Shown: positions 5,998-48,961 of the stretch, piece by piece
How positions within the stretch are numbered: the first letter of the stretch is position 1
How the letters are laid out: each line of letters starts with the position of its first letter
Assembly (NCBI GenBank): GCA_948567375.1
Contig: OX419756.1
Coordinates: 45,832,333-45,896,332, forward strand
Origin: Lunularia cruciata
Lineage: Eukaryota; Streptophyta; Marchantiopsida; Lunulariales; Lunulariaceae
Reading direction: 5' to 3'
DNA: 64,000 bases
Position numbers and translations under genes: made by a program
The notes under the pieces: model-generated
The model's database searches: none
What the model saw: the letters and a program-made list of their open reading frames with translations, nothing else
What the model was told of the DNA's origin: nothing

Positions 5998-6420
5998 TGT
6001 AAAAGACCGGAACCGAGGAGAGAAATAGGAGAATGGAAACTCACATTGGGACACTTGAATGAGGGAAAACTCCGAATGCCTAGCATGAGCTTTGGCCTTG
6101 GTATTTACAGGTAGCATACAAGACCTTTGAAGCTTCTCAAGAAGCTTCCTTGAGCCGCTTTCTTGGAGTGCAAGTCAAGTTAACTAGGAAGCTTCTCAAG
6201 AAGCTTCCTTCTAGAAGCCGCCTACTTGGCGTGCAAGCTAAGCTAGTTAGAAGCTTCTAGAAGCTTCCTTCTAGAAGCTACCTGCTTAGGGCGCAAGTTA
6301 ACTAGTTGGGAAGCTTCCTAAGAAGCTTCTTAGATGCTTCTAGAATATTCTAGGCTATTTTGGCTTATTCTCTACTTCGTAAGCCCGACTAACTTCGTCA
6401 CTAAACTCCATATTGTTACA
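5998..6420 (-). repeat. LTR of element Y (3' LTR in element orientation)
   Basis: Read on the plus strand it begins tgtaaaagacc and ends atattgttaca; in element orientation it is TGTAAC...TTTTACA. It is almost identical to 9934-10356. A purine-rich tract (GGCGGGGGAATA in element orientation) lies next to it at 6421-6432. Confidence 0.95.
6128..6350 (-). promoter_or_regulatory. Cluster of heat-shock elements in the Y LTR
   Basis: The stretch holds many alternating GAA/TTC units at 2-base spacing. GAAGCTTC occurs at about 6129, 6141, 6188, 6200, 6310 and 6322. A four-unit run GAAGCTTCTAGAAGCTTC is at about 6250-6267. TTCTAGAA is at about 6209 and 6269, and a three-unit TTCTAGAATATTC at about 6338. 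This is the nGAAnnTTCn arrangement bound by heat-shock factor trimers. Activity is inferred, not shown. Confidence 0.7.
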
Positions 6421-9400
6421 TATTCCCCCGCCGCTAGTTGGTGACGTCCTCGTCGCCAGTGAAGCTTCAAATTCCTTGATGGCCATCTGTGCATTCTGGA
6501 GGTGAGAAAGAGGTTCCCATGTGGCATCATGAAGGGGATACCCTTTCCAAAGGACCTTGTACTCCATGTGTTGGCGACGGCCTTGTTGAATATGGCGACG
6601 CGCAAGGATACGATCAACTTCGTACTCCTCATGATCATTGATAGGGATGGGAAGAGGGGGAGGTTGGACTCGAGAGGAAAAGGAAGAAGGGTTAGGAACA
6701 AAGGGTTTCAACTTGGAAACATGAAAGATAGGATGGATACGCATGTGACAAGGTAAGGCAAGACGATAAGCAACATGAGAGATAATATGGGTGATATCAA
6801 AGGGTCCTATCCAATTAGGAGCAAGTTTACGATTTTGGGTATCAAGTGGGAGAGGGAGGTTACTAGAGGATAGCATGACTTTATCACCAACTTCAAAGGT
6901 GAGATCACGACGATGATGGTCTGCATATTGTTTTTGGCGATTCTAAGCAACAAGGAGGTGAGACTTGGCTTGTTGGAGAGAGCGGGATATAGTGGTCAAG
7001 AATGTAGAAGTATGAGGAACCTGAGAGGGAGGGGGAGCAAGAAGAGAATCTAGAACAAGCGGATCTTGGCCAAAATTGAGAAAGAAGGGAGAAAATCCAG
7101 TGCTTGCCTATTTGGAGTTGTTGTAGGCAAATTCTACAGCTGCAAGACATTCATCCCAGTTGGTATGGTGGACATTGACAAAGGCCCGCAACATATCCTC
7201 CAATGTACGATTGGCGCGTTCAGTTTGTCCATCAGTTTGAGGATGATAGGCCGTGGACAAAGCAAGCTTGGTGCCGAGTATCTGAAAGAGTGCTTGCCAA
7301 AACTTCTCGGTAAAGCGAGGATCACGGTCGGAGATGAGTACGCGTGGCATGCCATGATGCTTGAAAACATTGTCAAAGTAGATTTGTGCTAAGGTTGGAG
7401 CATCCACGGTATCACAAGTTGGTGCCAAGTGGATTTGCTTACTAAGCTTATCCACAAACACCACGATGGCGGTGTGTCCTTGTTTTGTCTTTGGCAAGGA
7501 TGTGATGAGATCCAAGCTCACATGCTCCCAACGAGCGGATGGAATGGCAAGTGGTTGAAGGAGTCCACTCGGCTTCTGGTTGCTAGCCTTGTTCCGTTGG
7601 CAACTCTCACATGATCGGACAAAGTCTCAAACATCTCGTGTCATGTTGGGCCACCACCATTGGCGTTAGAGGGTGCCCAAGGTCTTGTCCACTCCCATGT
7701 GACCAGCTATTGGTAAATCATGGGCTTCTTGAAGGCGCACAAGTCGAAGATCATCTTTGGCTGGAACATAGATCTGGTCTGCATGGAACATATTCTTTGG
7801 AACAAATAGTACCGGTGCTCTCCACGGAGAGGTACTATGTCATATGAAATACTTCTCCAACAACTCTGTAAGTGTTGTTTGCAACTCCTCCAACTCCTTT
7901 GGTGAGAGCCAATAGATTGGTCTACTCACTGGAGTACTCCCTGGCAATAACTCGATCTTGAAGGGCATACCTTGATCGGAGGGTAATCCCTTTGGCAGAT
8001 CATCTAGAAACACATCTGCAAACTCCTGAACTATCCGATCAACCATTGCTTGATGCGGCACTTGGCCCTCCTCATATTGTTCTTGTGCAATCGGCTTGAT
8101 CCACACCGCAAATACAGACTTATTGTCCTCCAAAGCTTGCTCTATGGCTGCTTCATTCACAAACTTCCCTTTTAGGGACTCATCTCTCTTCCAAGCTTGC
8201 TCCATGGTTGCCTTCCTGGCAAACTTCCCATCTTGGGACTCATCTTCCTTCCATATTCGCTCTATGGCTACCTTCTCGACAAACTTCCCATCTTGGGACT
8301 GACTATTCTTAGGTGTCTTACTCAGGTGTGCCAGACAACCTAATCGGAAATTCCTACCTTGGTGTTGTACTTGAATTTGGTGTCGGGTCCAATCAAATTG
8401 AACCTTATGACATTCAAGCCAAGGTAGACCTAGAATGATATCATAGTGTAGAGGTGCCACTACAAACCTCATACACTCCAAATACTCCTTCCCAATCTTG
8501 AAGGTAACGGGATGCAAGGTGTGGAATGCAGAACCCTTTCTACCATCCGCCATCATCAAACTACTTCCAATCACTGGCTTGATAGGAATACCCAATTCCT
8601 TTGCTACTTGCATAGACATGTAATTCTCTGAACTTCCAGAATCAACTAAAATTCTACAACCCCAATTAGATATCATACCTTGCAAGTGAAGCAAACTTGC
8701 ATAGGTCGAGCATTCAATCCCATTGGAACTAATCAAGCTCCCAGTAGGTGGCTCAAAATCTCCTACTGGGATTCCTCGTTTCCCGGATCATTCCACTCCA
8801 CAACCTCCACTTGGGCAACTTGTCGAGGTCGTCCATTCTTGAGTGGACATTCAGCAATGCGATGCCCTAACTGGCGACAATAAAAACAACCTCCATTTTG
8901 TCGTAATCTTTCTCTATCTGCTGTGCCACTTGGTCTTCGCTGGATAGCATCAATCTCCATTGGTACCAGTTCTTCCACTCGTGGTACGGGTAGGTTTTGT
9001 GTAGGTCAATGTCGAGACCAAGTTGTGGCAACTAAGGAATCAAAATGCTCAGCCAATTGCATGGCTTCTTCTACGTTCTGTGGCTCTTGCATGGTCACCT
9101 CCAATCTGGTTTGTGACTTCAATCCTCGCACAAATCGATCTAGAACTTCACCTTCTTGGATATCTGGAATTTGCATGATGATATTCTGAACTTGTGTGAT
9201 GTAGCTTCTCACTAAGCCAATCTGCCTCAACTCCGCCAATTTATCTTATGCAGCTCGGGTGGCATTTTTAGTCTGAAATCGACCAAGTATTGCATCCTTG
9301 AATTCTGCCCATGTCAAAATTGGTGTAACAATTTGTCGTTCAGCTCTTTCTACTCGGAATCGCCACCAAAGTTTTGCCACGCCATCGAATTGGCTAGAAG

Positions 9401-10356: not shown

Positions 10357-13300
10357 ACATAAGTAGAAATCCATTATATGGTTAGACCAAAAGTGATGTT
10401 TAGGGATTTTGTAGTCCATAATTTTGGTGAGGGATATTATCACAAGTGATAGTCTTTGAGGTCCCAATAGTTTGTGCTCCCTTTGAATGATCATTCATTG
10501 AAGTAGGAAGAAGAAATTGAACATTGGTCATATGTAGGAATCATGGATCCGTAGTTGCAAGAGTTGATGCAAGGAATGTAGGGGATGTTGAACAAGTTTT
10601 GAGAAATCAAGATGACTATGGAAGAATTGCAAAATCAAATACATATTGTCAAGAATGATCAAGTAAGAATGCAAGAAGGGGAGCCCTCTCAACAACCAAC
10701 ACCAATGATCAAAGTACTTGGAGAGTTACTCATGCCGATGACACCAATTCCAATCAACAACCAAGCCATATTGTTACTACCAATGAAAAGATGTGCAACA
10801 TTGAGCCTTCCAAGGGATATCTTTCCATGGGAGTTATGGAAAATTGGATTTCAAGAATGAATGAATACCTTTGATTGTTCATAATGGAGATCATTGATCA
10901 TCTTGCACGTGTGTTTGCATGTGGGTACTTGATTGATATAGCCCTCACATGGTATGATGCTTGGGGACAATCATACCTCTCTTCCTTCTACCAAAGATTG
11001 GTAGAAGGAAGAGAGGTCACTTGGACAGCCATGCAAGAAAGGTTGCTCAAGAATTTCCAATCTATGGATTCCATGCAAATGGCCCAAACTAGAGTAAGGA
11101 GGTTGAAGCAAAAGAATAGCATACAAGAATATGTGAAGGCATTTCTTGATCTACAGGTTGCAATAATTGAAATGAGTCCAGCCAAAGCTCTTGTTAATTT
11201 CAAAAGAGGATTAAAAGAGCAAATTCATCAATAGATAATGGTGCAAATCCTTGTACTATTTTTGAAGCCATTTCTTATGCTCAAAGAATAGGCAGGGGTG
11301 CTTGGAAGAGATAAAGCAATAACATTGATGCAAAACTATTGGATTGAGACACACCATTTTGGTGGACTAATTCCTATGGAATTGTACAACATTTTGTTTC
11401 AAGACCAAGGAGCAAGACACCTCCAAGGAGAATGAGGACAAGTTGAAGAAAGGAGAGAAGGAGTCCTATGAGGAGAAGGAGCTCAAGCAGAACAACAATG
11501 ATGTCAAAATTGTGGTTGAATTGGACTTATAGCTATCAATTGTTGTGCTTGTCATCTTAGAAGCCCTTGGCCTCCATAAAAATGACCTTTGAATCAATGG
11601 AGAGATGAATTGAAGAGGAGGATGTAGACTCTACATCAAAAAACAAAGATCACCAATAAATGTACCTCATGGCCTTATTAACTCAATGAAGAAGAGTAAA
11701 AGCAGGGGAAGGAAGAGGACAAGTGTGCAAAGATGGAGGAAGACAAACATACAATTAATTGTTGTAAATGGATTGCTAGAAGGCAATGTGGTGATAGTGT
11801 AAATAGGCCCTAGAGCAACAAAGAATTTCTTGTCTTGCTTTATTGTGATAAGGTTGGGGATAGAACTAAAGAAGGATGAGAATGATGAATCAGAGTTACC
11901 AAATGGTCAACAGAGAGGATTGAGTCATTACCTAAAAAGGTAATACTATCTATAGGAGAATATCAAGAAGCAATTGAGTGGCAGGTGGTACAATTAGCTC
12001 ATTATGATGCAATCTTAGGTATGCCATGGATGGAGCACTACAATCCCACATGGTTGGATAAAGAAAGAAATGAAAACTAGTCAATGGAAGATCTTTGGGA
12101 TTAAAGGAAGATCAAAAGGCAAGAGTTGCCTTTATATGTCATAAAGACCACATCTATTGGTAAGACAAATAGACGTTTCATGGGGTTAATAAGAGAAGTC
12201 CGGAGTGCCCAAGTAAATGTAGAAGGTATCCAAGTGCTAATAGATAAAATAGAGGTCATTCAAAAATGGAGTGCTCCAAAAGATCAAACTCAGCTCAAGG
12301 GTTTCTTGGGATTGATGGGGTTTTATCATCATTGTTTCAAGGACTTCTCCAAGATTGCACAACCTCTAACAACACTATTGAGCAAGGAGAAGAACTGGAT
12401 ATGGGGAACCGCACAAGAATTGAACTTTTAGGAGTTCAAAGACATATTACTACATGCACCAATCTTGAAATGGTATGACACAAAAAATCCAATCAAGATG
12501 GCAATGGATGCATCAAGTGTAGCAATAGGAGTAGTCCTACAACAAGAGTGATAGGATGTATAGCATCCAATTACATATTTTTCTCATAAGTTATTACTGG
12601 AAAAATGCAACTATCACACCACCAAATGAGAAGAGCTAGTCATTATCCTTGCAACCAAGCATTGGAAGCACTCTTTGGGTGAGAAGGCATTTATGGTAGA
12701 GATAGATCATAAACCTCTAGTCTATCTCAAAACACAAAAAGACTTGTGTCTTGAGGTAGACTCATCAATATATTTGGTGAGCAGAGTGGAGATGACAATT
12801 CAACATGACAATCAGATATGTGGAAGGCAAGAAGCAACTTGCAGATGCATTCACCTAGATGCCAATGGTAAAAAATTTGATGGTTGAAGTCAAGATGAAC
12901 CCTAAATTTTGGGTAAGGATTCTTGTTGCTACAAAAACTAATCCAGAAATTGTAGGTGCTCAATCATCCAAAGGCATCACCAACACCAAAGAACTCACCT
13001 TCCATGATGGCAGGTTATAGATCTTGGATACCACAAATCTAAGAACCACCATCCTAGCAAAATGTCATGATTTGGCCATTGCAAGTCATGTTAGAGTAGA
13101 CAGGACCTTAGATGCAATCAAATGCCATTATTATTGGCCAAAGATAGAAATGATGTGATGGAGTATGTTTGGAGCTGCCTACTCTGTCAACAAAATAAGG
13201 CTTCCAATCAAGCTCCCATAGGAATCCTCCAATCCCTTCCCACTCTTACATAATGTTAGGAACATATAAGCATAGATCTGGTTTTTGAGTTGCCCAGGAC

Positions 13301-14361
13301 CACCTTTGAGTTTGACTCCATCGTATTCTTTGTCGACCAACTCAGCAAAATGATTCATATGTGTCCTACCACCACGGACGTGACTGCAACGCAACTAGAT
13401 CAATTGTACTTAGATGTAGTCTTTGCCCATCATGATCTATCTCGAGTACTCATCACCAATAGAGGCACTAAATTCACTATTTTGTTTTGGAGAACACTCT
13501 TTGGGTTCTTCAAAACCAAATTGGCCATGTCCACAACTTACCATCTATAGACCGATGGACAAACAAAGAGGGAAAATTGCACTATTGAGAACATGCTTTG
13601 AGGCTTTACTTTGGATGAGCAAGAGAGGTGGGACACCTTATTCCCATTGGTGGAATGTGCTTACAACAATTTTGTGAATGCCTCCACATAAGTCACACTA
13701 TTATTCCTCATGTATGGAGAGCATCCTTTCACACCTTCAAGTTTGATGAACGTCTGTCCTATGGCTACAAAGGTTGACGCAATCAACACTTTTGTGTCTA
13801 GAATCCAATAGGGTGTGGAGAACACCAAGCACATGTTGCAGATCACCCAAAACTGACAAAAGCAATATGTAGATGCACACCGCTAATACATGGAGTTCAA
13901 TGTGAGTGATCAAGTTTGGCTGTCAACCACCAATCTCAAGTTAGTTGGCCCTCATAACCTCAGACTTTGTTTTATTGAACCTTTCTCCATTCTTTGTCAA
14001 ATTGGCATAATGGCATATCACCTCACGCTACCACCACACATAAAGATCCATCTAGTATTTCATGTTTCCTTATTACATAGATATGCACCTTGATCGCCCT
14101 ACTTCTTTTCCATCCAAGAAAGTTGACCTTGCCCAACCCTCATTAATGACACGGAGGAATATGAAGTTGAACGCATTCTCCAGAAATGCATTTTTGGCAC
14201 TCGCCATCCATGTGTGGAATATCTTGTACATTGGAAAGGGTACCCATTGTATGAGGCAACATGGGAGCCAACAACCAACTTGACCAACGCACCGGTGTTA
14301 GTTCAATCTTTTGAGCAACAACTTCACAACAAGGATGTTGTGTCTTAAAAGAGGGGAGGTT

Positions 14362-19531: not shown

Positions 19532-19731
19532 NNNNNNNNNNNNNNNNNNNNNNNNNNNNNNNNNNNNNNNNNNNNNNNNNNNNNNNNNNNNNNNNNNNNN
19601 NNNNNNNNNNNNNNNNNNNNNNNNNNNNNNNNNNNNNNNNNNNNNNNNNNNNNNNNNNNNNNNNNNNNNNNNNNNNNNNNNNNNNNNNNNNNNNNNNNNN
19701 NNNNNNNNNNNNNNNNNNNNNNNNNNNNNNN
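19532..19731. other. Assembly gap (200 N)
   Basis: There are exactly 200 N, a conventional fixed-size placeholder for a gap of unknown length. Reading frames across it are meaningless. Confidence 0.99.
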
Positions 19732-21479: not shown

Positions 21480-21777
21480 AAATAATCAAAGGATCACCTT
21501 ATAAACACATTCCTAGTGGTGAACTGCACATTGGCAAGGGTTGACTGATCATTGGTAGGCTCGATGAAGAATTGCACTCTTTTGAACAATTAAGAACAGC
21601 TGAGCATCATGTAGAGACTATGTGCAAAGACATGCTTGGGGAGGTAAATAACAATCTTGTCTAGAGATTGACCTTGGCTCTTGTTAATAGTCATAGCAAA
21701 TGCTAGGTTTAGAGGGAATTACTTTCTTTGAATCTTCATTGGAATAATTTTATTGGTGGGTGATAGGTTAAGATGTG
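21480..21777 (-). pseudogene. Helitron Pif1-like helicase, C-terminal part (decayed)
   Basis: The minus strand encodes FPLNLAFAMTINKSQGQSLD and then KIVIYLPKHVFAHSLYMMLSC. This is the conserved motif V/VI region of the Pif1-family helicase found in plant Helitrons (typically FPxRLAFAMTINKSQGQTL...VYLPxPVFSHGQLYVALSR). Immediately upstream in the protein, HLNLSPTNKIIPMKIQRK also fits the family. In-frame stops (one just before FPLNL) show it is dead. The preceding part of the helicase continues at 31682-31800, on the other side of the retroelement inserted at 21778. Helitrons move by rolling-circle replication; this is only a fragment. Confidence 0.85.
21773..21777. repeat. Target-site duplication (ATGTG), left copy
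   Basis: ATGTG immediately precedes the element and recurs at 31682-31686. Taking one copy away leaves the Helitron helicase reading frame continuous from one side to the other, which independently confirms the element borders. Confidence 0.8.
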
Positions 21778-22228
21778 TGTCACGCCATTTGTAGTTCTGC
21801 ATCTAGATGCTCGAACATTGGAGTTCCAGTGATGGTAGTTAGAGTTATTCTAGCAGTTTCTTAGGGACTACTTTCTGACGGTTAGATTTTGTGTTCGGGG
21901 TACTGACTTCACGGTGGGGCCCACCGTCACTTTGCACCGTTTGCACCGTCGAGTGTGCCGTCAGCGGGACCGTTAGGGTTTCAGGGCTAGCTCGAGTCCA
22001 GGGGGTATAGTTTCAAAGTGAGCTCCAGAGAGCTCACTTCTCTGATGTTGAGCCTTCGAGTTCCTGGCTATGGTGGACAGAGGCCGGCGAGCGTCACATG
22101 GATTCTCTATGCTTGAGTGGGTGTGGCTTGACTGTAATCAGTGCCCAGTTGTTGGCAGTTTATAGAGTGATAGATCAAGTACTGATCTGAGTTGAGTTGA
22201 GTTGAGAGTGTTAAGCAATCTGATTACA
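21778..22228 (+). repeat. 5' LTR portion (segment B) of the methyltransferase element
   Basis: It matches 31128-31577 over about 450 bp with about 15 differences. It starts TGTCACGCC and ends GATTACA just before the primer site. The first about 107 bp of the full LTR (segment A, 31021-31127) is not present on this side. It contains two conserved perfect hairpins (21911-21927 and 22017-22038) and a cluster of CCGT motifs. Confidence 0.9.
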
Positions 22229-22245
22229 TCAGAGAAGTGAAGTCA
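22229..22245 (+). other. Weak primer-binding site of the methyltransferase element
   Basis: The LTR ends ..attaca and the next bases run tcagagaagtgaag, so atcagag overlaps the junction. It shares seven bases with the tRNA-Met-complementary TGGTATCAGAGC. The match is partial. Confidence 0.4.
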
Positions 22246-23506
22246 GGGGGAAATCGGGTGCAGGAACGTTGAGTGTTGGTGGTATCTCCAAGCTCGGTGG
22301 ATCGTGGTAGCTCGATTCAGGTTTTGTGTTTCCCTAGTGTGCAGAAGCTCGTGTAGTTGATGCAAATTTGGCAGTTAGGCGGACGGTGTGCGGAAGTGCT
22401 GGCCAAATTTCAAACAAAGAAGGAGCAATTTTCGAGCAGTGTTGTGATTTTGAGCTCAAGAGGTGAAGGCAGGACCAATTTGCTGCGAGTTGGGCTCAGA
22501 AAGTGAAATTGAAGGTGGAGTTGGAAAGCTCTTCTCATGAAATTGTGATTTGGAAAAACCCGTTTTGTCAATTTGGCTTGAGTGGAAAGTTAGCGGGGGA
22601 TTTGGCGGACATCCATCTTTAGGGTTACGTCAGATTTACGTCAAATTTTTGGGCCAAAATTGGAGGAGTTTTGCTGTTTGGCCAGATTTGGAGAAGTTTT
22701 GCTAGTTTGGAGGAGTTTCACAGATTTGGAGAAGTTTCGCCAATTTTGGAGGAGGTTCGAAGTGGCAACAAGAAAGGCCTCATTTGGGCGTTTAGAGGCT
22801 TTGAGGCATAGGGCTGTGGGCTATGAGAGGCTACGAAGGCCTAGAAGGGCCAGCAAGCCAGCTTGCTGGCGTGAGACTAGCTAGTTTAGAGTAGATCTTG
22901 GTCATTGGTTGGCAAAATCTGCCTTTCTTGCTAGATTGTGCACAACAGGGTTTGACCCCTAGATCTCTTGTTCCTAGACTGGTGCCCTAGCCAACTGGTC
23001 CACCCTCACTTGTTGTCATAGTGACTGTGCCAGTGTTATCTATACACATGTAGCTTTGGCTAGGAGAGGCAGTTTGATCCCATTCTTGGTGATCATGGTA
23101 GCTTAGGACTTAGATACGAACTACTCTTATGTCAAATGCCAAATGGTGGTAGAGTCAGTCCCGTGTTGTGTTATGAGATGGAGGGTTTTCGTTTAGATTT
23201 CTTGTGATTGGATCCCCTCCATTCTCTGCTTCCTGTTTGTGCACCACGTTTGTGTGAGGTGCCCTGACTTTTGAGCGTTGGTGCTCTGGTGTGCTCTCGG
23301 TGGTGAGGCTGGAGTGATGACCAGTCAGACTACCTTTGTTTCTCTCCGGTGAGGCAGGAAGTGATGACCTGCAGACCGTGAGAGTGCGTGTTATGATGGC
23401 AGGTTACAGGTTGCCCTTCCCCTAGTGTAGTTATCTCGGTTAGAGTTACATTAGTGGGTGGTGTCTAGTTGGTGTTGGCACTTGGTGGAGCACTTGCAGT
23501 TGCGAC
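22246..23506 (+). other. Long untranslated leader of the methyltransferase element
   Basis: About 1.3 kb lies between the LTR and gag. The only sizeable reading frame (22660-22884) is low-complexity and looks non-coding. A tRNA-like segment lies on the opposite strand at 22946-23004. Confidence 0.5.
22946..23004 (-). other. tRNA-like segment in the leader
   Basis: On the minus strand TGGACCAGTTGGCTAGGGC resembles a pol III A box and D arm (consensus TRGCNNAGYNGG). About 30 bases later GGGTCAAACCC resembles a B box and T arm. The intervening arm reads like a degenerate anticodon arm with AGG in anticodon position, but its stem does not pair. It could be a tRNA pseudogene, a SINE head or chance. 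Confidence 0.35.
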
Positions 23507-24830
23507 TTGCGGTTGCAGTTGGTGGTTCGGGTTTGTTGGTGTGGTTACGTGGTCACGACGGAGTTCTTTGGAGATTCCAGAGGAGTTAGCCCTGCAGTAC
23601 GCAATGGGTTTACTCGGAGTGGTGCTCGGTATCAGCCTGTATCTCGGGTCCCAGTGAGGGAGGAGATTGACTCTGAGTTGGAGTTCAACACAGGAGCTAA
23701 TTCAGTTGAGAGTGCACTTGGTGTGTCCGCACCGTTGTTGTGGGACATGGACGAGATTTATGGGGCCTCCAAAGGCCCTAGGCGTTACTCTGGTACAGTG
23801 GGTACCATTGAGTTGGATGACTTCATCCAGGAGTTTGATAGTTGGTGTGATCTGCAGCAGATGCGGAACCCGACTTTGTTCACACCTTTCATGGCATGGA
23901 AGGGGTTGTTTCAGCACTTGGAGGGTCCGCCAATGGATGACTACCATGAGTTTAGGAGAGCTTATTTGGAGGAGATTGAGTTATGGAGACAATATTGGTC
24001 TCCACACTATGTCTCCATCACTTCAGGCTCGGTGGCCAGGAGTAGATCGGCTGTACCCACAAGTTTTAGCTCGAGTAGTGTTGGTGGAGCTAGTGGAGGT
24101 GCACTAGCTGGAGATAGTGCTACAACGAGTGGAGGTACCGCTGCAGGAGGTGGTGTGGTACCGGGGTTTAACCCCATGGTAGAGTTCTTCCTATGTTTGA
24201 GGCAGAACTACCAGGGAGTGCGGACTGACAAGCTGAGGAGCTTGCAGGAGTTCCAGCGGAAGGCTGGAGAGAGCCTACGCGAGGCATATACTCGCATGAG
24301 GCGGCTGATCAGTTTCACTCAGGGAGTTACTGAGGCCCAGGCAGTCCAGTTTTGGTATGGGATACTGGACAGGGAGTTGCGACGTAGAGTTTGTGATGCT
24401 ACGTTGTTGCAGGCTACTTCACCCACTTTGGCAGTAGTCTTTGGTTTGGCTGAGCGTATTGAGCTCAACATGGTGGAGGAGAGAGTGGTGACAGCTGGAT
24501 TTGGTAGAGAGACCTCATCCATGGTTGTGACTTCTTCTAGAGTGCAGCAGAGTGCACCACGCCCAGTTGGTTTTCGAGGACAGGGTGGACAGCCCAGATC
24601 CTATGGAGCGAGTGGAGGGCCTAGTGGAGTTAGACCCTTACCCTCATTTTTGGGTCAGCAGCAGCCAGTGAGTGGTGGTGTTGCTTGTTGGACTTGTGGT
24701 GGACCTCACCATAGGAGAGAGTGTACTTAGGGCAGCGGACCTGATACCTCTGGTGCATCACAGCCAGCACAGAGGCAGTGTGAGCATTGCCACAGATTTG
24801 GTCACACTAGTGACCGGTGTTTTGACCTAC
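23507..24830 (+). other. gag region of the methyltransferase element
   Basis: A capsid-like Retrotrans_gag region is visible (WKGLFQHLEGPP, then FQRKAGESLREAYTRMRRLI and LDRELRRRV). It is followed by two zinc knuckles: CWTCGGPHHRREC (24687-24725) and CEHCHRFGHTSDRC (24781-24822), the latter a perfect CX2CX4HX4C. A Ser/Gly/Ala-rich linker separates the two halves of the capsid region. Confidence 0.85.
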
Positions 24831-25639
24831 ACTTGGAGTTACGGAGTGGTAGGGCTGCTATGGTAGGTAGTAGAGGAGCTCTAGTTCATGGAGGACGAGG
24901 TGGTAGAGGTGGTGGTAGAGGATCTACACCTAGTAGGGGTGCAGTACCTGCCCTTACTTCTGACATAGCTATGGCTACTTGGATTGAGCAATTGGAGCAG
25001 AGATTGGCTAGTATGGCTATTGCTCAGAGGAGATCAGATTCGGGTGCTGAGGCTTCCACCTCATATGCTGGTGATAGAGATGCTTTGGACTTCATGTGCG
25101 GAGCAGCACAGGTGGATGCATCTGCAGCAGTGACTAGGAGTGCAGTACGTGCTCTAGAGCCTAGAGGAGCATCAGTGGAGTTGGACCCACAAAGAGGAGA
25201 GGTTGGGAGACAGGTCAGACTTCCCCAGTCTTTCACGCTATCTGAGGCATTGCAGACAACATCCATGGTTCCTAGACGTCCCAATGTAGGTGTGGTAGGT
25301 GGTGATGGAGTACATGATGGACTACTTGCTAGTCAGCCACCTGCTACTACACAGACTGAGTCTAGCATGATGTTGGGGGCGGCTCAGCTGATTATGCGGC
25401 ATCCTTTATCTTCAGCCAATGACATGTTTACATTGGGAGTTGACCCAGCCCCAATGTTCCGGTTGGCTGCCACGTTGTGTGAGAGTAGGGATGGTGCAGT
25501 TCCTACTACTAGAGCAGAGGTGGTTGGTAGTGGAGCTGACTTGGTTGAGGAGCATGGGATCCGTTCAGCGACCAGTGGTTTATGGCAGGCAGCAGCGGCT
25601 AGACTGGAGGAGTTGCCAGCTAGACCGGCCTTTGAGAGA

Positions 25640-25980
25640 GCGCGGTTTACACCTATTGTTGTCCTATTGGATAACCAGAGGGGGATCTCTTGTTTAGTGG
25701 GACTTTCAGGGAAGGTCTATACACCACAGAGAGTCTTGTTAGACTCTGGTGCGCAGCCCCTTATGTTGGGGAAGGCTGTAGTTGTCGGTCTGGAGTTACG
25801 GAAGACCGATGTGGAGAGGTGTCCATTTCAGATCCAGACATCTCTTGGTGGTGGTTCGACACAGTACATCACACGTGGGGAGCTTGTTGTCCAGGTTCAG
25901 CCTGGTCATCCGACTGATAGCTCGGTGGTGAGAGCTCAAGCTATTGCGACGATAGTTGAGTCATATGATGTGCTAGTTGG
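25640..25980 (+). other. Aspartic protease domain of the methyltransferase element
   Basis: The retropepsin active-site motif VLLDSGAQPLML is at about 25732-25767, followed by the expected hydrophobic strands (VQVQPGH, VESYDVLVGGAVL). In Ty3/gypsy elements this enzyme cuts the Gag-Pol polyprotein. A Gly/Arg-rich basic stretch (GGRGGRGGGRGS, about 24890-24940) precedes it. Confidence 0.85.
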
Positions 25981-26449
25981 GGGAGCAGTGTTATACCCCA
26001 TGGGTTTCGGTATTGACTATTGGGAGGAGACAACCTCTTATAGACCTGGTTGGCAGTTTGGTGAAGGACGGGTATGTCACCTACCAGTACGCTTCAGTAG
26101 TGGCAGTCTTGGATCACTATAGTCCGGGACCATGGCAACATCAGTTTTAGCTTTCAGCGGTGCAGTTACTTGGCCTGGTGACTTGTTGGAGGGGAACGCC
26201 CATGCAGAGGATACTCCAGTACCAGAGGAGATCACTCGGCTATGGAGTACGAGTGGGATTGTTCCATCCACCTTGGATGTTCCATTGTGGAGTTCAGAGG
26301 AGGCATTGCAGCAGCATGCAGATCAGTTGGTGCAGCAGGCTTGGAGTGGAGCCTTCGTACCATCAGGAGATGAGTGTGAGGATGAGCCTCCAGAGGCGAT
26401 TGATTTGACACCTTTGGATACCACACTCATTGCTTGGCAGTATCCAGTA

Positions 26450-27420
26450 GAGGGGATATGTCTATTGGAGTTGTTTGGTGGGATCAGCACCGGACTAGCT
26501 ACGGTGTTACAGGCGGGTATCCGAGTACAGAGGTACTTGTATGTAGAGAGAGATGAGACTGCTAGGCGAGTCTCTCTACATCATGTGGCACACTTGGCCT
26601 ATCGGTATCCGGAGTTATTACCGATGTCAGCAGTCAGAGGTTACCAGAAGGCCTTACCAAGAGACATTTCCTTACTGGGGGCGCATGACCTAGAGAGACA
26701 TGGGCCTATTCACTTGGTGATTTCTGGATGGCCATGTCAGGGACATACACGTGCGGGCCGTGGTTTGGGTCTTCAGGATCCTCGTTCTGGTGTGTTTTGG
26801 GAGATGTTACGGATACTACGACATCTCCAGGTTCATTAGTCTGTTTCTCCAGCTTACCTTTTGGAGAACGTTCCTTTGTTGGGTGATTCTCGCACTAGAG
26901 TGGTGGTGAGTACACATCAGGTCCATTCTTGGATGGGACCTGCTGTATTGTTAGATGCAGCCAGAGTGGGATCACGAGCTCATCGTCTTCGTCTTTGGTG
27001 GACAAACCTTTTACCCAGAGAGGTTCTACAGCGTAGTTATGATGGGATTCAGCGACTTGACCACATCCTTGTTGATGATATCTTGGATGTTGGGCGGCAG
27101 TCTCAGATAGTGGTAGTGGCTGATAGGTCACCTATGGCAGTGGTGAACCTAGTTGGACAGCCTAGAGCTGCATTTCCCACACTCATGAGTTTCCCAGGCT
27201 CTCATGCTTTTCGAGAGGGAGGACCTGGACTTGTTTGGGACTCACAGTTACAGCAGTTGGTGGAGCCCAATGCTGATGAGAGAGAGCGGGCGATGGGTTT
27301 TTGCACCGGTATTACCGCTGTTCCAGCAGTGTCAGAGGCATCCAAGCGTCAGGTGTTAGGTCAGGCTATGGACCTAAACTGTTTGACTTGGATTGTGAGC
27401 CTTGGTTTGGCAGAGCAGCG
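26450..27420 (+). other. Cytosine-5 DNA methyltransferase domain (DNMT3-like) inside the gypsy pol
   Basis: The motifs run in canonical order. Motif I is LLELFGGISTGLATV (about 26462), the S-adenosylmethionine site. Motif II region is YLYVERDETARR. Motif IV is ISGWPCQGHT (PCQ at about 26732; the Cys is the catalytic nucleophile). Motif VI is LLENVPLLG (about 26858). Motif VIII is GSRAHRLRLWWTNL (about 26969). Motif IX is ADERERAMGF (about 27266) and motif X is KRQVLGQAMDLN (about 27340). The wording of I, VIII, IX and X fits the DNMT3/DRM clade best, and the unpermuted order fits DNMT3 rather than plant DRM. No bromo-adjacent-homology or chromo domain of CMT/MET1 type is seen. It lies between protease and RT, so it is presumably made as part of Gag-Pol. 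Members of this family methylate cytosine in DNA; activity of this copy is not implied. Confidence 0.9.
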
Positions 27421-27479
27421 TAGGATGCGCTTGATAGGCATCACCACTCGGACACTTGTGAGCCCTGTGCCTATCGAGA

Positions 27480-27660
27480 CGATTCAAGCACATGCTGGGG
27501 GCGATGGACCGAGTGGACATGGTATTCTTGGGACACATCCAGTAGCTACCAGGGAGAGTGGTCTACTTGGAGTCCATCCAGGTGAGCGTGGGCTACTTGG
27601 ATTACACCCTTGGTCCACATGGGATGCAGCCAGAGGACATATGGAGCTTGCAGCCAGAGT
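27480..27660 (+). other. Short-repeat linker between methyltransferase and RT
   Basis: The protein reads GHGILGTHP, GLLGVHPGER, GLLGLHPWS in succession, a small internal repeat of GLLGxHP with no known function. It separates the methyltransferase from the RT. Confidence 0.5.
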
Positions 27661-27899
27661 GGAGGGAGTTTTTCACACAGAGGTTGGGACCTCTAGTGGT
27701 CGGGAGCATGACACCATTGCTCCCAAGGGCCCAGTGTAGCAGCCAGTCAGTACGTCTTCCACTCCTACTACAGTTATAGAGGATACTTGGGAGCCAGATC
27801 TTGGACTCAAGCTTACTGGAGAGGAAAGACGGAGGGTTTGGAGGTTCTTCAGGAGTCACACGAGTTGTTTTGCCTTCAGTATGAAGGATTTGGGTGCTC

Positions 27900-28560
27900 T
27901 GAAGGGACCTGGTATACGGATTGAGCTGACTAGCGACACACCAGTTTTCCGACGTCCTTATTGATATAGTGATATGGAGAGGACATTGATTCAGAGCCGG
28001 AGTAGTGACCTTTTTGAGGCTGGTTTGGTGGAGATTTCACATGGAGAGTATGCATCAGCGACAGTGATGCCAGCCAAGAAGGATATGCATGGCAACTATA
28101 CAGATAGGCGGATGTGTGGAGATTACTGTCTTATCAACCGACAGACCAAGGCTGATCGGTATGCCATGCCTACACCGGAGGAGATTTTTGATGCGATTGG
28201 GCATACAAAGGTCTTCAGTACTTTGGATCTTCAAGCGGGATATCATCAGTTGCCGATCAGGGAGGAAGATAAGTCCAAGACAGCATTTTGGGCTATTGAT
28301 CCTCACGGCAAGGATGTGTTATATCAGTGGAGGTTCTTACCATTTGGGTTGAAGAACGCTCCTGCTGAGTTCCAGAGGGTCATGGATAGGATCCTAGCTG
28401 GACTGGATTTTGCTCGGTGCTATATTGATGACATTTTGGTTTATAGTACTACTGTGGAGGAGCATGAGAGACAGTTGTTGGAGGTGTTTGAGAGGTTGAG
28501 ATCTCATGACTCAAATTACATCCTGGGAAGTGTAGGTTCTTCCATGAGCAGGTTGAGTAT
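27900..28560 (+). other. Reverse transcriptase domain of the methyltransferase element
   Basis: Typical Ty3/gypsy RT blocks are present: GLVEISHGEYASATVMPAKK, RMCGDYCLINRQT, FSTLDLQAGYHQLPI, FLPFGLKNAPAEFQRVMD and the catalytic CYIDDILVYS (28418-28447). Confidence 0.93.
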
Positions 28561-28599
28561 TTGGGTCACACTATCTACCCCGGAGGACTTGGTGTTCAG

Positions 28600-29220
28600 C
28601 AGACCAAGGTGGAGGCTATTGCACGTATTCCTCGGCCCACGGATGTGAGCAGAGTGCGAGCATTCCTTGGGTTGGCAAACTTCTATCGCCGCTATGTTAG
28701 AGGATTTAGTGCCATTGCCAAGGCCTTGACGAAGCTGACCAAGCTTACACAGGAGTGGTGTTGGGGAGATGAGCAGGAGAGAGCTTTTGTAGAGCTCAAG
28801 GAGAGGTTGACATCTGCTCCTATTTTGAGGAGACCGATCAAGGGACGACCATTTCAGGTTCACACTAATTGGAGTATGTTGGGGCTTGGAGCGGTGCTCA
28901 CCTAGCATGATGATGAGGAGAAGGAGTTTGTGGTGGCCTATGCTAGTCGCTCCAACAATTCAGCAGAGGCGAAGTATAGTTCATATGAGGGAGAGTGCTT
29001 GGCAGCAGTTTGGGCAGTAGCACATTTCTGATGTTACCTATTTGGTAACCCCTTCACTCTCATCACTGATCATCAGCCGTTGAAGTGGTTGATGGAGTCT
29101 GACAAGCTTTCAGGGAAGCTTGCACGATGGGCTCTGATTTTACAGGAGTATGATTTCACGGTTGTGCACAGACCTGGAGTGGTGAACCGTGATGCAGATG
29201 GGTTGAGTAGAAACCCATGT
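28600..29220 (+). other. RT thumb and RNase H region of the methyltransferase element
   Basis: RVRAFLGLANFYRRYVRGFS and the following ALTKL are the RT-RNase H connection. LITDHQPLKWLM and VVHRPGVVNRDADGLSR are RNase H hallmarks of Ty3/gypsy elements. Confidence 0.88.
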
Positions 29221-29599
29221 CCCAGCCAGCAGGATCAGACCGGAGCACGTTGGCATGGTGAGATAGATGAGGAGATGGTGCCAGGTTGGCATGCATCGGC
29301 CTTTCTGTGTATATTTGTAGAGACTTTGGTGGTATCTCTCTCAGCGCATACAGGAGGAGTTATTGAGGTCACAGATCCAGAGAGTGAAGATATTAGTACA
29401 GTCCAGCGAGACATTCATGATGATGTCTTAGTGATGGACTATCTTTGCACTGGTGTTGTGGGTGGCACAGTTGGGGCCAAGGAGAGAGACCGTGTTCTTC
29501 AGCGAGCCAGACGGTTCAGATTGGAGGGTAGACACCTTTTGCGTGTATGGGAGGATGGTAGAGTGCGAGTAGTACCACTTCCATCACAGAGACCACAGT

Positions 29600-30650
29600 T
29601 GGTCCGTCATGCTCATGAGGAGCTAGGACATTTTGGAGTAAAGCGTACATATAGCTTACTCTAGAGTCATTATTGGTGGCGCGGTATGCAGACCGAGGTA
29701 CAACAGTTTGTTGCCAGATGTATGGTTTGTGACCAAGTTAGAGCATCATTCAATGCTCCTACGCCACAATTACACCCATTACCTATCATGGGATTGGGTT
29801 ATCGTTGGAGTTTGGACTTTGCCGGACCTTTACCGCTGACTGTGAGACATCATCGGTATGTTTTGGTGATGGTGGAGCACTTCTCCAAGTGGATTGAGTT
29901 GGTGGCACTTCCTGACAAGTCTAGTGAAGGGACAACTTACTTGTTCTTGGATCGAGTTCTTAGTCATTTTGGTGCACCAGCTGAGGTTTTGACTGATCAG
30001 GGTACAGAGTTCTTGGGAGAGTTTCAGGTCTTGTGTGACAAGGCTTTGATTGATCATCGTACTACATCCCGAGATCACCCTGAGGCAGATGGCTTAGCAG
30101 AGAGAGTGGTTCAGACGGTGAAGAGAGGATTGCGAAAGTATGGTTTGCAGAGAGGCCACTTGGGAGATTGGGATCTCTAGTTACCTTGGTTGGCCATGGG
30201 CTATCGGTTCAGCCGGCAAGCCTCCTTAGCATCCTTCTCTCCATACTTTCTACTCTATGGACAAGATCCAGATTTACCTACAGCCATTCGTCAAGATGCT
30301 ACTATAGTTTTGGACTTGGATGACCCCGATGTATGGATGAGCGCATATTCTCAGCGGGCAGAGATCTTTTGGAGAGTGATGCCGATGGCCTTTGAGAACT
30401 TGGCGATTGCTCAGCATAGAGATACTTTACGCTATGCTACCATTCGAGGAGGAGGTTATAGACCCTCGATCCGTCAATTTCATCCAGGTGACTATGTATA
30501 TCTACAGCAGACATCACCGACGACACTTGATGTTTCTACAGGCCGCACTATCTTGAGAGTGCACGAGGTTTTGCCATCTGGAGTCCTTTTGTTAGAAGGA
30601 CGTGATGGTGTTGTTTGGAAGGATCATGTGCGCAATTGTGCGCCATGCAA
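29600..30650 (+). other. Integrase region of the methyltransferase element
   Basis: An HHCC zinc-binding region (HAHEELGHFG ... CMVCDQ, about 29606-29735) is followed by the DDE core: WSLDFAGPLP (about 29810), LTDQGTEFLG (about 29990) and HPEADGLAERVVQ (about 30078). The C-terminal part with FHPGDYVYLQQ and VWKDHVRNCAP corresponds to the GPY/F-type tail. Confidence 0.9.
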
Positions 30651-30711
30651 CCTTCCAAACATTGATGGTACAATGGACCCAAGCTTGGCACTTGTACGTG
30701 CATGCTTGAGG

Positions 30712-30846
30712 TGTATGTTATGTGGCTCTTCTGGTGGAGCTGCTACTATGTTAGTGTGTGATAGCTGTTCGAGAGGATGGCATATGGCATGTATGACTCC
30801 TCCCCTCACGGTGGTTCCTCAGGGACAGTGGTTATGTCCTAGATGT
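30712..30846 (+). other. PHD finger at the end of the integrase
   Basis: A Cys4-His-Cys3 set is present: CMLC, then CDSC, GWHMAC, and WLCPRC. Spacing is C-x2-C-x11-C-x2-C-x4-H-x2-C-x14-C-x2-C, with the invariant Trp two residues before the seventh ligand. PHD fingers typically read histone H3 tails. The position is where chromoviruses carry a chromodomain, so a targeting role is plausible but inferred. Confidence 0.88.
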
Positions 30847-31009
30847 ACTTGACCTATAGCTAGTTTATTCTTTATATGGTATAGATTGCAGACAAGCGAC
30901 TAACGATGGGGCTCCATAGCACCCGGCCTCCTGATCTTCGCCCATTAGAGGGTATACCATATACTTAGAGTAGATGGCTATCTGGAGTTAGAGGGACCTA
31001 ACCGCCAGC

Positions 31010-31020
31010 TAGGGGGCGAT
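31010..31020 (+). other. Polypurine tract of the methyltransferase element
   Basis: The sequence agggggcgat sits directly before TGTGGCAC, the start of the full-length LTR. This supports reading the LTR as segment A followed by B. Confidence 0.65.
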
Positions 31021-31577
31021 TGTGGCACTTTAGAGTCTATGTATGACTTATGTGTGAGTTTTGCTTTTATAGTGTATGATGTTGACAACAATGTATGTTG
31101 TGTAGCGATGTATATACGCACGACAGCTGTCACACCATTTGTAGTTCCGCATCTAGATGCTCGAACACTAGAGTTCCAGTGATGGTAGTTAGAGTTATTC
31201 TAGCAGTTTCTTAGGGACTACTTTCCGACGGTTAGATTTTGTGTTCAGGGTACTGACTTCACGGTGGGGCCCACCGTCACTTTGCACCGTTTGCACCGTC
31301 GAGTGTGCCGTTAGCGGGACCATTAGGGTTTCAGGGCTAGCTCAAGTCCAGGGGGTATAGTTTCGAAGTGAGCTCCAGAGAGCTCACTTCTCTGATGTTG
31401 AGCCTTCGAGTTCCTGGCTATGGTGGACAGAGACCGGCGAGCGTCACCTGGATTCTCTATGCTTGAGTGGGTGTGGCTTGACTATAATCAGTGCCCAGTT
31501 GTTGGCAGTTTATAGAATGACAGATCAAGTACTGATCTGAGTTGAGTTGAGTTGAGAGTGTTAAGCAATCTGATTAT
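31021..31577 (+). repeat. Full-length LTR (segments A and B) of the methyltransferase element
   Basis: It starts TGTGGCAC after the purine tract; the partner LTR ends GATTACA. Segment A (31021-31127) ends in the left half of the palindrome GACAGCTGTC (31122-31131), and segment B starts at its right half. Segment B matches 21778-22228. Confidence 0.85.
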
Positions 31578-31681
31578 TGTGGCACTTTAGAGTCTATGTA
31601 TGACTTATGTGTGAGTTTTGCTTTTATAGTGTATGATGTTGACAGCGATGTATGTTGTGTAGCGATGTATATATGCACGAC
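31578..31681 (+). repeat. Extra LTR segment A at the right end
   Basis: It matches 31021-31124 with three differences in about 105 bp and joins the preceding LTR end to end, as in the LTR-LTR junction of a two-LTR circle. It stops at the left half of the GACAGCTGTC palindrome and is followed by the target duplication. Confidence 0.85.
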
Positions 31682-31686
31682 ATGTG
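31682..31686. repeat. Target-site duplication (ATGTG), right copy
   Basis: It matches 21773-21777. The helicase sequence resumes just beyond it. Confidence 0.8.
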
Positions 31687-46559: not shown

Positions 46560-48961
46560 ATGAATGGAGAGGAAGCAAAAAGGATGGAGATGAAGAGAGC
46601 GGATAAGCTTGAGCGTGAGAGTTTGCTGGTTAGGAATGACACTGTAGATTACCTTGGCCAACGAGCTGACAAGTCAAGAACCGGAGGATGGATAACTGCA
46701 CCGCTCATTTTCGGTACGTTCTCACCAGACTGAGTACAGCTATTGCCACAAGCCTCAGAGCAAGCTCCAATCCAGGGCTTTTGAGACACCATACTATCGA
46801 TCTTTAGATGTTAATCAGGCCAAGCTATCCGTCGATGCCATGCAGGAGCGGAGATGTGCGAAAGAATGTCTGCCTGCGGGATTGTCTTCAACCTTGTCAC
46901 GTACCTCATGGGGAACCTTCATCTTTCCAGGCCGTATTCAGCGAACATGGTGACAAATATGTTGGGGACATCTTTCCTTACGTGCTTGATAGGAGGGTTC
47001 ATTGCCGACAGTTATTTGGGACGGTTTTTGACGATCGTTACCTTTGGCTGCATACAGTTCATGGTACCTTGCATCCCTTCTTTTAAGCCTTCTGATCTTC
47101 GTGTGATTTTCATGTTGGTCAACAAGAAAGCCTTGTCAACAGTTGCATGACATTGTGTGCGTCCTGACGGAACTTAAATTAACTGGTGTAGTTCCATGCA
47201 CGAGCATTGGTCTGTCTAGTGCTCTAATAACGTCAGGATGTGCAGGGTCTCGTTTTGATAACATTATTTGCGGCGTTGCCCCAGTTTCAGCTTCCACATT
47301 GCTCCCCGCCAGATGTTCCATGCCAAGCCATTCATGGTTTCAAACTGGCAGTTCTCTATTTCGCCCTTTACTTGATAGCATTGGGAACCGGAGGAATCAA
47401 AGCCTGCGTGTCAGCTTTCGGAGCAGATCAATTCGACTCGCATGATCCGCGTGAGAAGAAGCAGATGATGTCCTTTTTCAACTGGTTCTTCTTTTCAATC
47501 TCACTCGGTGCTCTTGTAGCCGTTACTATTCTTGTCTACGTCCAAGACAAACTGGGTCGGGGATGGGGTTTTGGCATAACTGCTTCTTGCATGCTCTTGG
47601 CACTAGTCGCACTCCTTGCAGGCCGCAAGTACTACAGATACAGTCCAATTGAGGGTAGCCCCTTGACAAAAATTGCTCGGGTCTTCATCGCAGCTTTCAG
47701 AAACCACAAGCTCACTTTCCCTGCCGATGTCTCACAGTTACATGAGACTTACCAAGGTTACGACAGGATCAGCCACACCAATCGATTATTGTAAGATTTG
47801 GACTGACATTAACTTATTCTGGATCACTACATACTTTACTGTTACTGTGGTACGATCCACTAATATCATTTCAGCAGGTTTGACAAACACCTTGACGGAT
47901 TGAACAAATTAATTAGCATCTAAATATTAATGCTTGAGTTGGTGGTACTGTGATATGAATGGTGCTAGTAATCTTAGAGAAAAATATTTGGACACATTCT
48001 GATCATTGCATCATTCTAAATCTAACTACAGATTATTGCCGCATGATCCAACAGATTTTTGAGTAAAGCAGCCATCAAGACCCCAAGAGAGAATGGAGAT
48101 GAATATTCTACTGACTTGAAAGCATCGAGGGACCGGTTACCAGCAGCAGTAACGGTAAATCAGGTGGAGGAGGTGAAAGTGCTCATCAGAGTCCTTCCTA
48201 TACTGCTTACCACGTTCCCTTTCTGGACGGTATACGCACAAATGACCACTTTCAGCATAGATCAATCTTTACGAATGAACAGAAAGCTTGGAAAGCACTT
48301 CGAGATTCCACCAGCATCCATTTCCATCTTTCTGCAATTGAGTATCATGCTTTTGTTGGTTCTTTACGATCGACTCTTCGTCCCATGTGCTCGTCATTTT
48401 TCTAAGCGTACTCGGGGCATCACTACCCTCCAACGGATCGGAGTCGGTTTGGTGTTTTCGATTACTGCCATGGTTGCTGCAGCCCTGGTGGAAACGAAAA
48501 GGCTCAATACTGTGCATCGCTCGGGATCCGATGGGAAAATCAGTGTGTTCTGGTTACTTCCTCAGTACTTTCTTGTGGGGACTGGAGAGGCCTTCACGTA
48601 TGTTGGCCAGCTTGAATTCTTCTACAACGAGTCGCCCACCAGCATGCGGTCCATGGCCACTGCAATTTGCTTGTGTACACTCTCGTTCGGTTTTTACTTC
48701 AGCAGTATTGTTGTTGACGCCGTTGACAGTCTTACCAGTAGGGGGTCTAACTCCGAAGGCTGGCTAGCAGAAAACTCAGACCTTGGGCATTTGGATAGGT
48801 TCTATTGGCTGCTTGCGATTGTCAGCACATTCAACTTCTTTCTCTATCTTCTTGTTTCGAAGTGGTATACCTACAGATTGAAGCCACACGAAAGCGATTT
48901 TGATGATCGAGATGAGGAGACTCCCGACATCACTGGTGATTCTTCCCGTCCCAAAGAATGA
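46560..48961 (+). CDS. NPF/POT-family proton-coupled transporter
   Basis: Four exons with GT-AG borders: 46560-46713, 46846-47063, 47246-47790 and 48055-48961, about 607 residues, which is normal for plant NPF proteins (about 550-620). All junctions keep frame. Hallmarks in order: GGWITAPLIFG; the EMCER form of the ExxER motif in the first membrane helix, linked to proton coupling; MGTSFLTCLIGGFIADSYLGR-like helices 2-3; GTGGIKACVSAFGADQFD; FFNWFFFSISLGALVA; HTNRL with FLSKAAI after the central loop; then VLPILLTTFPFWTVYAQMTT, IPPASISIFLQL and VGTGEAFTYVGQLEFFY. About 12 membrane helices with a central cytosolic loop are expected. Family members carry nitrate, di/tripeptides, hormones or glucosinolates across the plasma membrane or tonoplast; the substrate cannot be told from sequence. 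The first ATG at 46560 is chosen; a second Met is eight residues on. No breaks are seen. Confidence 0.93.

What the first reader, a model, noticed from the sequence alone, without database searches (positions are those of the whole stretch)
21778..31681. Plant Ty3/gypsy element that encodes its own DNMT3-like cytosine methyltransferase
Seen: methyltransferase motifs I, IV (PCQ), VI (ENV), VIII, IX and X lie in order between the aspartic protease and reverse transcriptase of one LTR element (26450-27420). Known: DNMT3 enzymes put new methyl groups on DNA; plant DRM enzymes have permuted motifs and this one does not. From memory, retrotransposon-borne cytosine methyltransferases have been reported in dinoflagellates and a charophyte alga, but I know of no land-plant gypsy family with gag-PR-MTase-RT-RH-IN-PHD order. 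Inference: the element may write methylation on its own or host DNA, for example to hide from or shape silencing.
Basis: partly seen in the sequence, partly recalled or inferred. Interest (0 to 1): 0.95.

Follow-up and report, generated by a model that had tools for sequence, protein, structure and literature searches.

The report
Jumping gene carrying its own methyltransferase
A very abundant virus-like jumping gene in what is probably a liverwort genome carries its own DNA-methylating enzyme, well preserved across distant relatives of the element, although land plants were said in print to lack such elements and what the enzyme does for the element is still unknown.

Summary
Window 21778-31682 is a Ty3/gypsy-type element (gag-PR-MTase-RT-RH-IN-PHD) with a DNMT3-type, unpermuted cytosine methyltransferase. 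This copy is decayed; the family is large. The genome (566 Mb) holds 4,020 matches to a 26-mer at its PCQ motif; 33 of 65 sampled copies have no stop in 538 MTase codons. Relatives occur in Marchantia, Riccia, Calypogeia, Sphagnum and Monoraphidium. Against a distant relative (L001) with saturated silent sites the MTase keeps 52-53% identity without a gap: above protease and gag, below RT and integrase.
Corrections: the MTase ends ORF1; RT-IN follows one in-frame UAG in the readthrough context CARYYA, also present in L001. The ends are split repeats, A-int-B-A-B, with 4-bp target duplications. A recent copy of host DNMT3 is not supported.
A charophyte gypsy-DNMT3 element with this repeat plan is published (PMC5890265); a 2019 paper says land plants lack such elements (PMC6338049). 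New here: land plants, high copy number, readthrough context, PHD, deep conservation. Activity is untested.

The parts
21774..21777 (.). Left target-site duplication TGTG
   Evidence: a 4-bp duplication also in 5 of 5 other copies with both ends located, of 9 tried
21778..22226 (+). Repeat A1 (5' end, begins TG)
   Evidence: 434/449 identical to A2
22224..22235 (+). Possible degenerate primer-binding site at the end of A1
   Evidence: read by eye; weak match (8 of 12) to an initiator-Met PBS from recall; not tested
23444..27736 (+). ORF1 frame: gag - zinc knuckles - PR - MTase; three premature stops in this copy
   Evidence: 1428-aa open frames in other copies
23660..24727 (+). gag, with a CCHC-like zinc knuckle at 24686-24724
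   Evidence: Pfam Retrotrans_gag 0.011, under cut-off; zinc knuckle read by eye
24779..24820 (+). second CCHC-like zinc knuckle
   Evidence: read by eye
25640..26119 (+). aspartic protease (DSGAQ motif)
   Evidence: 43% identity to L001 protease; homologs P0027 and P0030 carry PF13650; no Pfam hit of its own
26450..27430 (+). DNMT3-type cytosine C5 methyltransferase domain, motifs unpermuted; one premature stop in this copy
   Evidence: fold of homolog P0004
27737..27745 (+). ORF1/ORF2 junction UAG-CAG-CCA, type I (CARYYA) readthrough context
   Evidence: motif in 64 of 66 copies, window included; motif as described in PMC5382211 and PMC3542737
27965..28500 (+). reverse transcriptase (ORF2); frame broken in this copy
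   Evidence: RVT_1 9e-22
28510..29150 (+). RT end and RNase H
   Evidence: RT_RNaseH_2, RT_RNaseH
29580..30180 (+). integrase zinc-binding and DDE core
   Evidence: Integrase_H2C2, rve 2.5e-13; 76% identity to L001 in the core
30712..30849 (+). PHD finger at integrase C-terminus
   Evidence: PHD 1.5e-11; aligned with L001, P0040, P0073
31008..31016 (+). polypurine tract, GCTAGGGGG
   Evidence: read; CTAGGGGGG at the like place in L001
31019..31125 (+). Repeat B1
   Evidence: 104/107 identical to B2
31119..31133 (.). B/A junction CACGACAGCTGTCAC (palindrome GACAGCTGTC)
   Evidence: identical in L001; 2,670 matches to a 24-mer over the junction in the genome
31128..31576 (+). Repeat A2
31576..31682 (+). 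Repeat B2 (3' end, ends CA)
   Evidence: A/B junction 28-mer has 3,556 matches in the genome
31683..31686 (.). Right target-site duplication TGTG

Best explanation
A high-copy gypsy-type retroelement family makes a Gag-protease-methyltransferase protein from ORF1 and, by occasional reading through of one UAG, a longer protein that adds RT-RNase H-integrase-PHD. The MTase is therefore expected at Gag-like amounts inside the particle, and most likely adds methyl groups to cytosines of the element's own new DNA copy before or at integration, so that new copies arrive already marked like the host's methylated chromatin. Shown: the domains, their order, the DNMT3-type sequence and (in a homolog) fold, deep conservation, copy number, split repeats, integrase-type target duplications, the UAG-CARYYA junction. 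Inferred: readthrough in vivo (about 0.8), catalytic activity (about 0.7), own cDNA as main substrate (about 0.5), advantage being concealment or tolerance by the host (about 0.3). The anatomy also suggests that integrase joins the ends at the B/A palindrome, which lies inside the PPT/PBS-defined repeat, so a circular or joined cDNA stage is likely (about 0.6; the PBS itself is not established).
Confidence: 0.55

Rival explanations
1. The MTase acts in trans on host chromatin, at insertion sites or genome-wide, with the PHD finger steering the integration complex, so that the element shapes its landing places rather than its own cDNA.
For: PHD found next to integrase in window, L001, Marchantia P0040 and P0073; thousands of motif matches.
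Against: No methylome here; MTase and PHD lie on different ORFs; PHD histone binding untested.
Confidence: 0.15
2. The MTase modifies RNA (genomic RNA or the tRNA primer), not DNA.
For: Gag-side position puts it with packaged RNA; the LINE-borne DNMT was suggested to act on RNA (PMC5890265 discussion).
Against: Profile is far nearer DNMT3A (2.2e-24) than the tRNA enzyme DNMT2 (2.4e-4).
Confidence: 0.1
3. The domain is kept as a DNA-binding or assembly part without catalysis, as DNMT3L is in mammals (recalled).
For: 8 of the 70 proteins in which the motif IV pattern was found have ECQ in place of PCQ.
Against: The motif IV Cys-Gln and motif VI Glu-Asn are invariant over 17 diverse rows; GWPCQGH in 64 of 66 copies.
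Confidence: 0.12
4. Passenger domain carried along by a successful element, with no function.
For: This copy and 32 of 65 sampled copies have stops in the 538 MTase codons; N/S contrast within the family is weak.
Against: 52-53% identity at saturated silent sites, above protease and gag; RNase H 26-mer 4,434 matches against MTase 26-mer 4,020, which suggests that MTase-less copies do not dominate (copies were not paired one by one).
Confidence: 0.06

Closest known systems
KnitGypsy-Dnmt3 of Klebsormidium nitens (PMC5890265)
   Same: Gypsy domains plus an unpermuted DNMT3-type domain; A-coding-B-A-B repeats; purifying selection reported there
   Different: Reported from a charophyte; MTase described in the Pol ORF; the main text has no word PHD, moss or liverwort; its sequence was not found here, so homology is untested
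SymbioDIRS-Dnmt3 of dinoflagellates (PMC5890265)
   Same: Retroelement DNMT3 with split repeats; CG activity shown in yeast
   Different: Tyrosine recombinase elements; ours has a DDE integrase and target duplications
Host DNMT3 (L127, L130) and DRM (L128, L141) of the same genome, named by motif content
   Same: C5 methyltransferase motifs
   Different: Host DNMT3 and DRM group with animal DNMT3A (97/88), apart from the element enzymes (77/99), though AU does not reject a joint group; DRM is permuted
Type I stop-codon readthrough of tobamoviruses (PMC5382211, PMC3542737, passages)
   Same: UAG followed by CARYYA
   Different: Here between gag-PR-MTase and RT-IN of a retroelement; no function test

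Membership tests
Ty3/gypsy retroelement | gag-PR-RT-RH-IN order with DDE integrase after RT | tested here: met
   (gag and protease rest on weak Pfam or on alignment to L001)
Ty3/gypsy retroelement | TG...CA ends and 4-5 bp target duplication | tested here: met
   window TGTG; 5 of 5 copies with both ends located, of 9 tried
Ty3/gypsy retroelement | a complete LTR at each end (usual feature; PMC5890265 still classed KnitGypsy-Dnmt3 as Gypsy without it) | tested here: not met
   A-int-B-A-B split repeats; so filed only as gypsy-type by coding domains
Ty3/gypsy retroelement | RT branches inside Ty3/gypsy | not tested
   no reference RT set held
DIRS retroelement | tyrosine recombinase, no target duplication | tested here: not met
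   DDE rve found, no recombinase hit among 9 pieces; 4-bp duplications
KnitGypsy-Dnmt3 type | gypsy domains with DNMT3-type MTase | tested here: met
KnitGypsy-Dnmt3 type | A-coding-B-A-B repeats | tested here: met
   described in PMC5890265 Fig. 4 legend
KnitGypsy-Dnmt3 type | sequence homology to the K. nitens element | not testable with these tools
   no record named Klebsormidium returned or 41
DNMT3 | unpermuted motifs, nearest profile and fold DNMT3 | tested here: met
DNMT3 | falls inside the animal plus plant DNMT3 group | tested here: inconclusive
   free tree puts element enzymes apart (77/99; host DNMT3+DRM+DNMT3A 97/88), AU p 0.111 for joining them to host DNMT3
Plant DNMT3 | C-terminal DUF3444 (PMC6453930 passage) | tested here: not met
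   only DNA_methylase found in P0001
DNMT3 | de novo methylation activity | not testable with these tools
   bench assay needed
DRM | permuted motif order | tested here: not met
   window order I-IV-VI-VIII-X; host DRMs L128 and L141 are permuted
Type I readthrough | UAG followed by CARYYA between two in-frame ORFs | tested here: met
Type I readthrough | readthrough product made | not testable with these tools
   reporter or proteomics needed

The most novel reading that the evidence does not exclude
Retroelements take up a methyltransferase when their cDNA passes through a circular or joined stage in the nucleus: here integrase attacks the internal B/A palindrome of such a molecule, and the Gag-borne MTase marks that DNA before integration, together with a PHD reader on the integrase. 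The shared split-repeat plan of this family, KnitGypsy-Dnmt3 and methyltransferase-bearing DIRS elements would then be no accident. This writer-plus-reader gypsy lineage would be about as old as green plants (horizontal transfer is not excluded) and would have expanded to thousands of copies in a liverwort.
Probability: 0.22. Interest if true: 0.92.

Novelty: new variant of a known kind. Interest (0 to 1): 0.75.

Why it matters
It is an element that carries the very enzyme class used to silence such elements, at a copy number (4,020 motif matches) where its effect on a methylome could be measured. Marchantia polymorpha, a laboratory plant, has long ORF1 records of the family (P0079, P0080), so the open question why transposons carry DNMTs becomes testable in a plant with genetics. 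It contradicts, for bryophytes, the printed statement that land plants lack methylase-encoding transposons (PMC6338049; vascular plants were not tested here), adds stop-codon readthrough as the likely gag-pol switch, and strengthens the link between DNMT-bearing elements and split repeats.

Tried and rejected
Lone insertion or assembly chimera: rejected. DRM: rejected by motif order. Recent capture of host DNMT3: not supported, not excluded. Relatives in IMG/VR: P0079 gave 3 pattern matches, none confirmed; A1 gave 50 weak loci, identity up to 45% over short stretches, best E 4e-10, not examined for retroelement domains; a DNA pattern gave 0. In genome contigs 8 loci were found, 7 of them weak bacterial ones, and L001. 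Host by NPF exon search: not informative; full-length NPFs probably fall outside the search's length range. Rfam: 0 hits at gathering scores. RNA structure after the UAG: none in the window, strong in L001. CpG depletion as a self-methylation footprint: not seen. The second profile search returned 35 proteins, none of which I could recognise as a host DNMT3. In one search DRM structures are not among the 50 rows shown; no weight is put on that. The PPT-B1 junction was never counted (unanswered, not repeated).
Full report
Anatomy. The element spans 21778-31682 and is flanked by TGTG on both sides. Its ends are not a normal LTR pair. Repeat A stands at 21778-22226 and 31128-31576 (434 of 449 identical) and repeat B at 31019-31125 and 31576-31682 (104 of 107), giving A-internal-B-A-B. 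A polypurine tract stands just before the first B, so ordinary reverse transcription would bound the cDNA by B and A, whereas the integrated ends are A (TG) and B (CA). The B/A junction CACGACAGCTGTCAC contains the palindrome GACAGCTGTC and is identical in the relative L001, again about 100 bases after a polypurine tract. I infer that integration joins that junction, as from a circular or joined cDNA; the primer-binding site is not established. In the genome a 28-mer over the A/B junction has 3,556 matches and a 24-mer over the B/A junction 2,670, with 0 in reversed controls; solo A-B remnants may be among the former. Both ends were located in 5 of 9 further copies tried, and all 5 have a 4-bp target duplication. 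One of them (L147/L148) ends after a single B; later recombination between the B copies could also give this.

Coding. Pfam finds RT, RNase H, integrase and PHD, a weak gag, and DNA_methylase. The protease gave no Pfam hit in the window and rests on its motif and on 43% identity to L001. ORF1 is gag-PR-MTase, ORF2 is RT-RH-IN-PHD, in the same frame and parted by UAG at 27737. The next six bases are CAGCCA in the window and CAATCA in L001; both fit CARYYA, the type I readthrough motif (motif from passages of PMC5382211 and PMC3542737). UAG-CARYYA occurs at the junction in 64 of 66 copies, window included, and twice in all on the window's + strand, which holds 1,035 TAGs, so the motif by itself is at chance frequency and it is the place that counts. 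The copies are close kin, so the independent evidence is the pair window and L001. Of 13 database proteins over 900 residues with a recognisable motif X, 11 end 96-146 residues after it; P0083 ends after 36 and P0098 runs on into RT.

Family. One search gave 77 proteins, one search gave 35, of which 26 were new. Source names include Calypogeia fissa, Marchantia polymorpha, Riccia sorocarpa, Sphagnum and Monoraphidium; many come without a name. Of 103 database proteins, 45 show protease before MTase, 5 MTase before RT, 3 RNase H before MTase (one of them also RT), 3 MTase directly before integrase, and 46 show the MTase alone, so two domain orders exist. ECQ replaces PCQ in 8 of the 70 proteins where the pattern was found, in both orders. 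In the 68-row tree the window's enzyme groups with the Calypogeia, Marchantia and Sphagnum ones (SH-aLRT 91, quick method). L001 lies in a MAG labelled cyanobacterium; that its true source is an alga is my inference, and horizontal transfer of the family is not excluded.

Own genome. G000 has 565,766,749 bases in 74 contigs; the contigs met include eight of 60-85 Mb. A 26-mer around PCQ has 4,020 matches and an RNase H 26-mer 4,434 (up to 3 mismatches, reversed controls 0). If each MTase match were a full copy this would be about 40 Mb, 7% of the genome; full length was not tested. From the liverwort kin of the element, eight large contigs and this size, the host is probably a liverwort, perhaps Lunularia cruciata, whose genome (581 Mb by k-mers) was enlarged by Ty3/Gypsy bursts (passages of PMC9985172); the species is inference only.

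Selection. Between window and L001 fourfold sites agree as random (9 of 34 and 17 of 60 in the MTase), yet identity is 53% and 52% over 129 and 197 MTase residues without a gap, against gag 30%, protease 43%, RT 64%, integrase core 76%. Of 65 copies taken from the 150 scored (a sample biased to the best matches), 33 have no stop in 538 codons. In the MTase domain N/S is 83/41 for singletons and 21/22 for variants in 4 or more copies (p 0.045); with all variants in 2 or more copies the contrast is lost (p 0.49), and RT shows none (p 0.39). Deep conservation is the strong evidence, the within-family test weak.

Methylation history. Between the repeat copies 17 of 18 differences are transitions and 13 of 18 lie at CG or CHG, contexts that make up 89 of 257 cytosines of A1 and B1. 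This fits deamination of methylated cytosines after insertion, by host enzymes at least for CHG. CpG content gives no sign of extra self-methylation.

Known and new. PMC5890265 (parts 1-2 of the text, sections 9-11 and passages read) describes KnitGypsy-Dnmt3 in a charophyte with the same repeat plan; its DNMT gave no yeast activity, called inconclusive. PMC12344493 (passages only) refers to retroelement DNMT3s of streptophytes and dinoflagellates as previously reported. [quoted passage not shown] Searches listed no land-plant report by title or abstract start; the library lacks most subscription papers. PMC6317226, a survey of plant LTR elements, has no occurrence of PHD or methyltransferase in its main text. 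The case is a new variant of a known kind.

Noticed in passing
window 2643-5011 (- strand): A second, diverged member of the family (71-73% nucleotide identity over the gag-PR-MTase region).
   Followed up: partly
window 6355-8787 (- strand): Remains of a chromodomain gypsy element (protease, integrase, SH3, chromodomain).
   Followed up: no
window 10875-13745: gag and RT/integrase fragments of other retroelements.
   Followed up: no
window 46815-48961: Exons of a plant POT/NPF transporter gene (PTR2 family), so the element lies in a stretch with host genes.
   Followed up: partly
L001 1-9285: Contig filed under a cyanobacterial MAG is a gypsy-MTase element, closed by a 127-bp end overlap: probably contamination of the MAG, assembled as a circle.
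   Followed up: partly
L147 and L148: A copy of the form A-internal-B only, with 4-bp target duplication ACTT: integration of a one-repeat circle or later recombination between B copies.
   Followed up: partly
P0055, P0056, P0057, P0059, P0065, P0067, P0074, P0098: ECQ instead of PCQ in motif IV; 4 of these 8 show MTase after RNase H or directly before integrase (P0055, P0059, P0067, P0074).
   Followed up: partly
window 19532-19731: Run of N in an AT-rich stretch.
   Followed up: no
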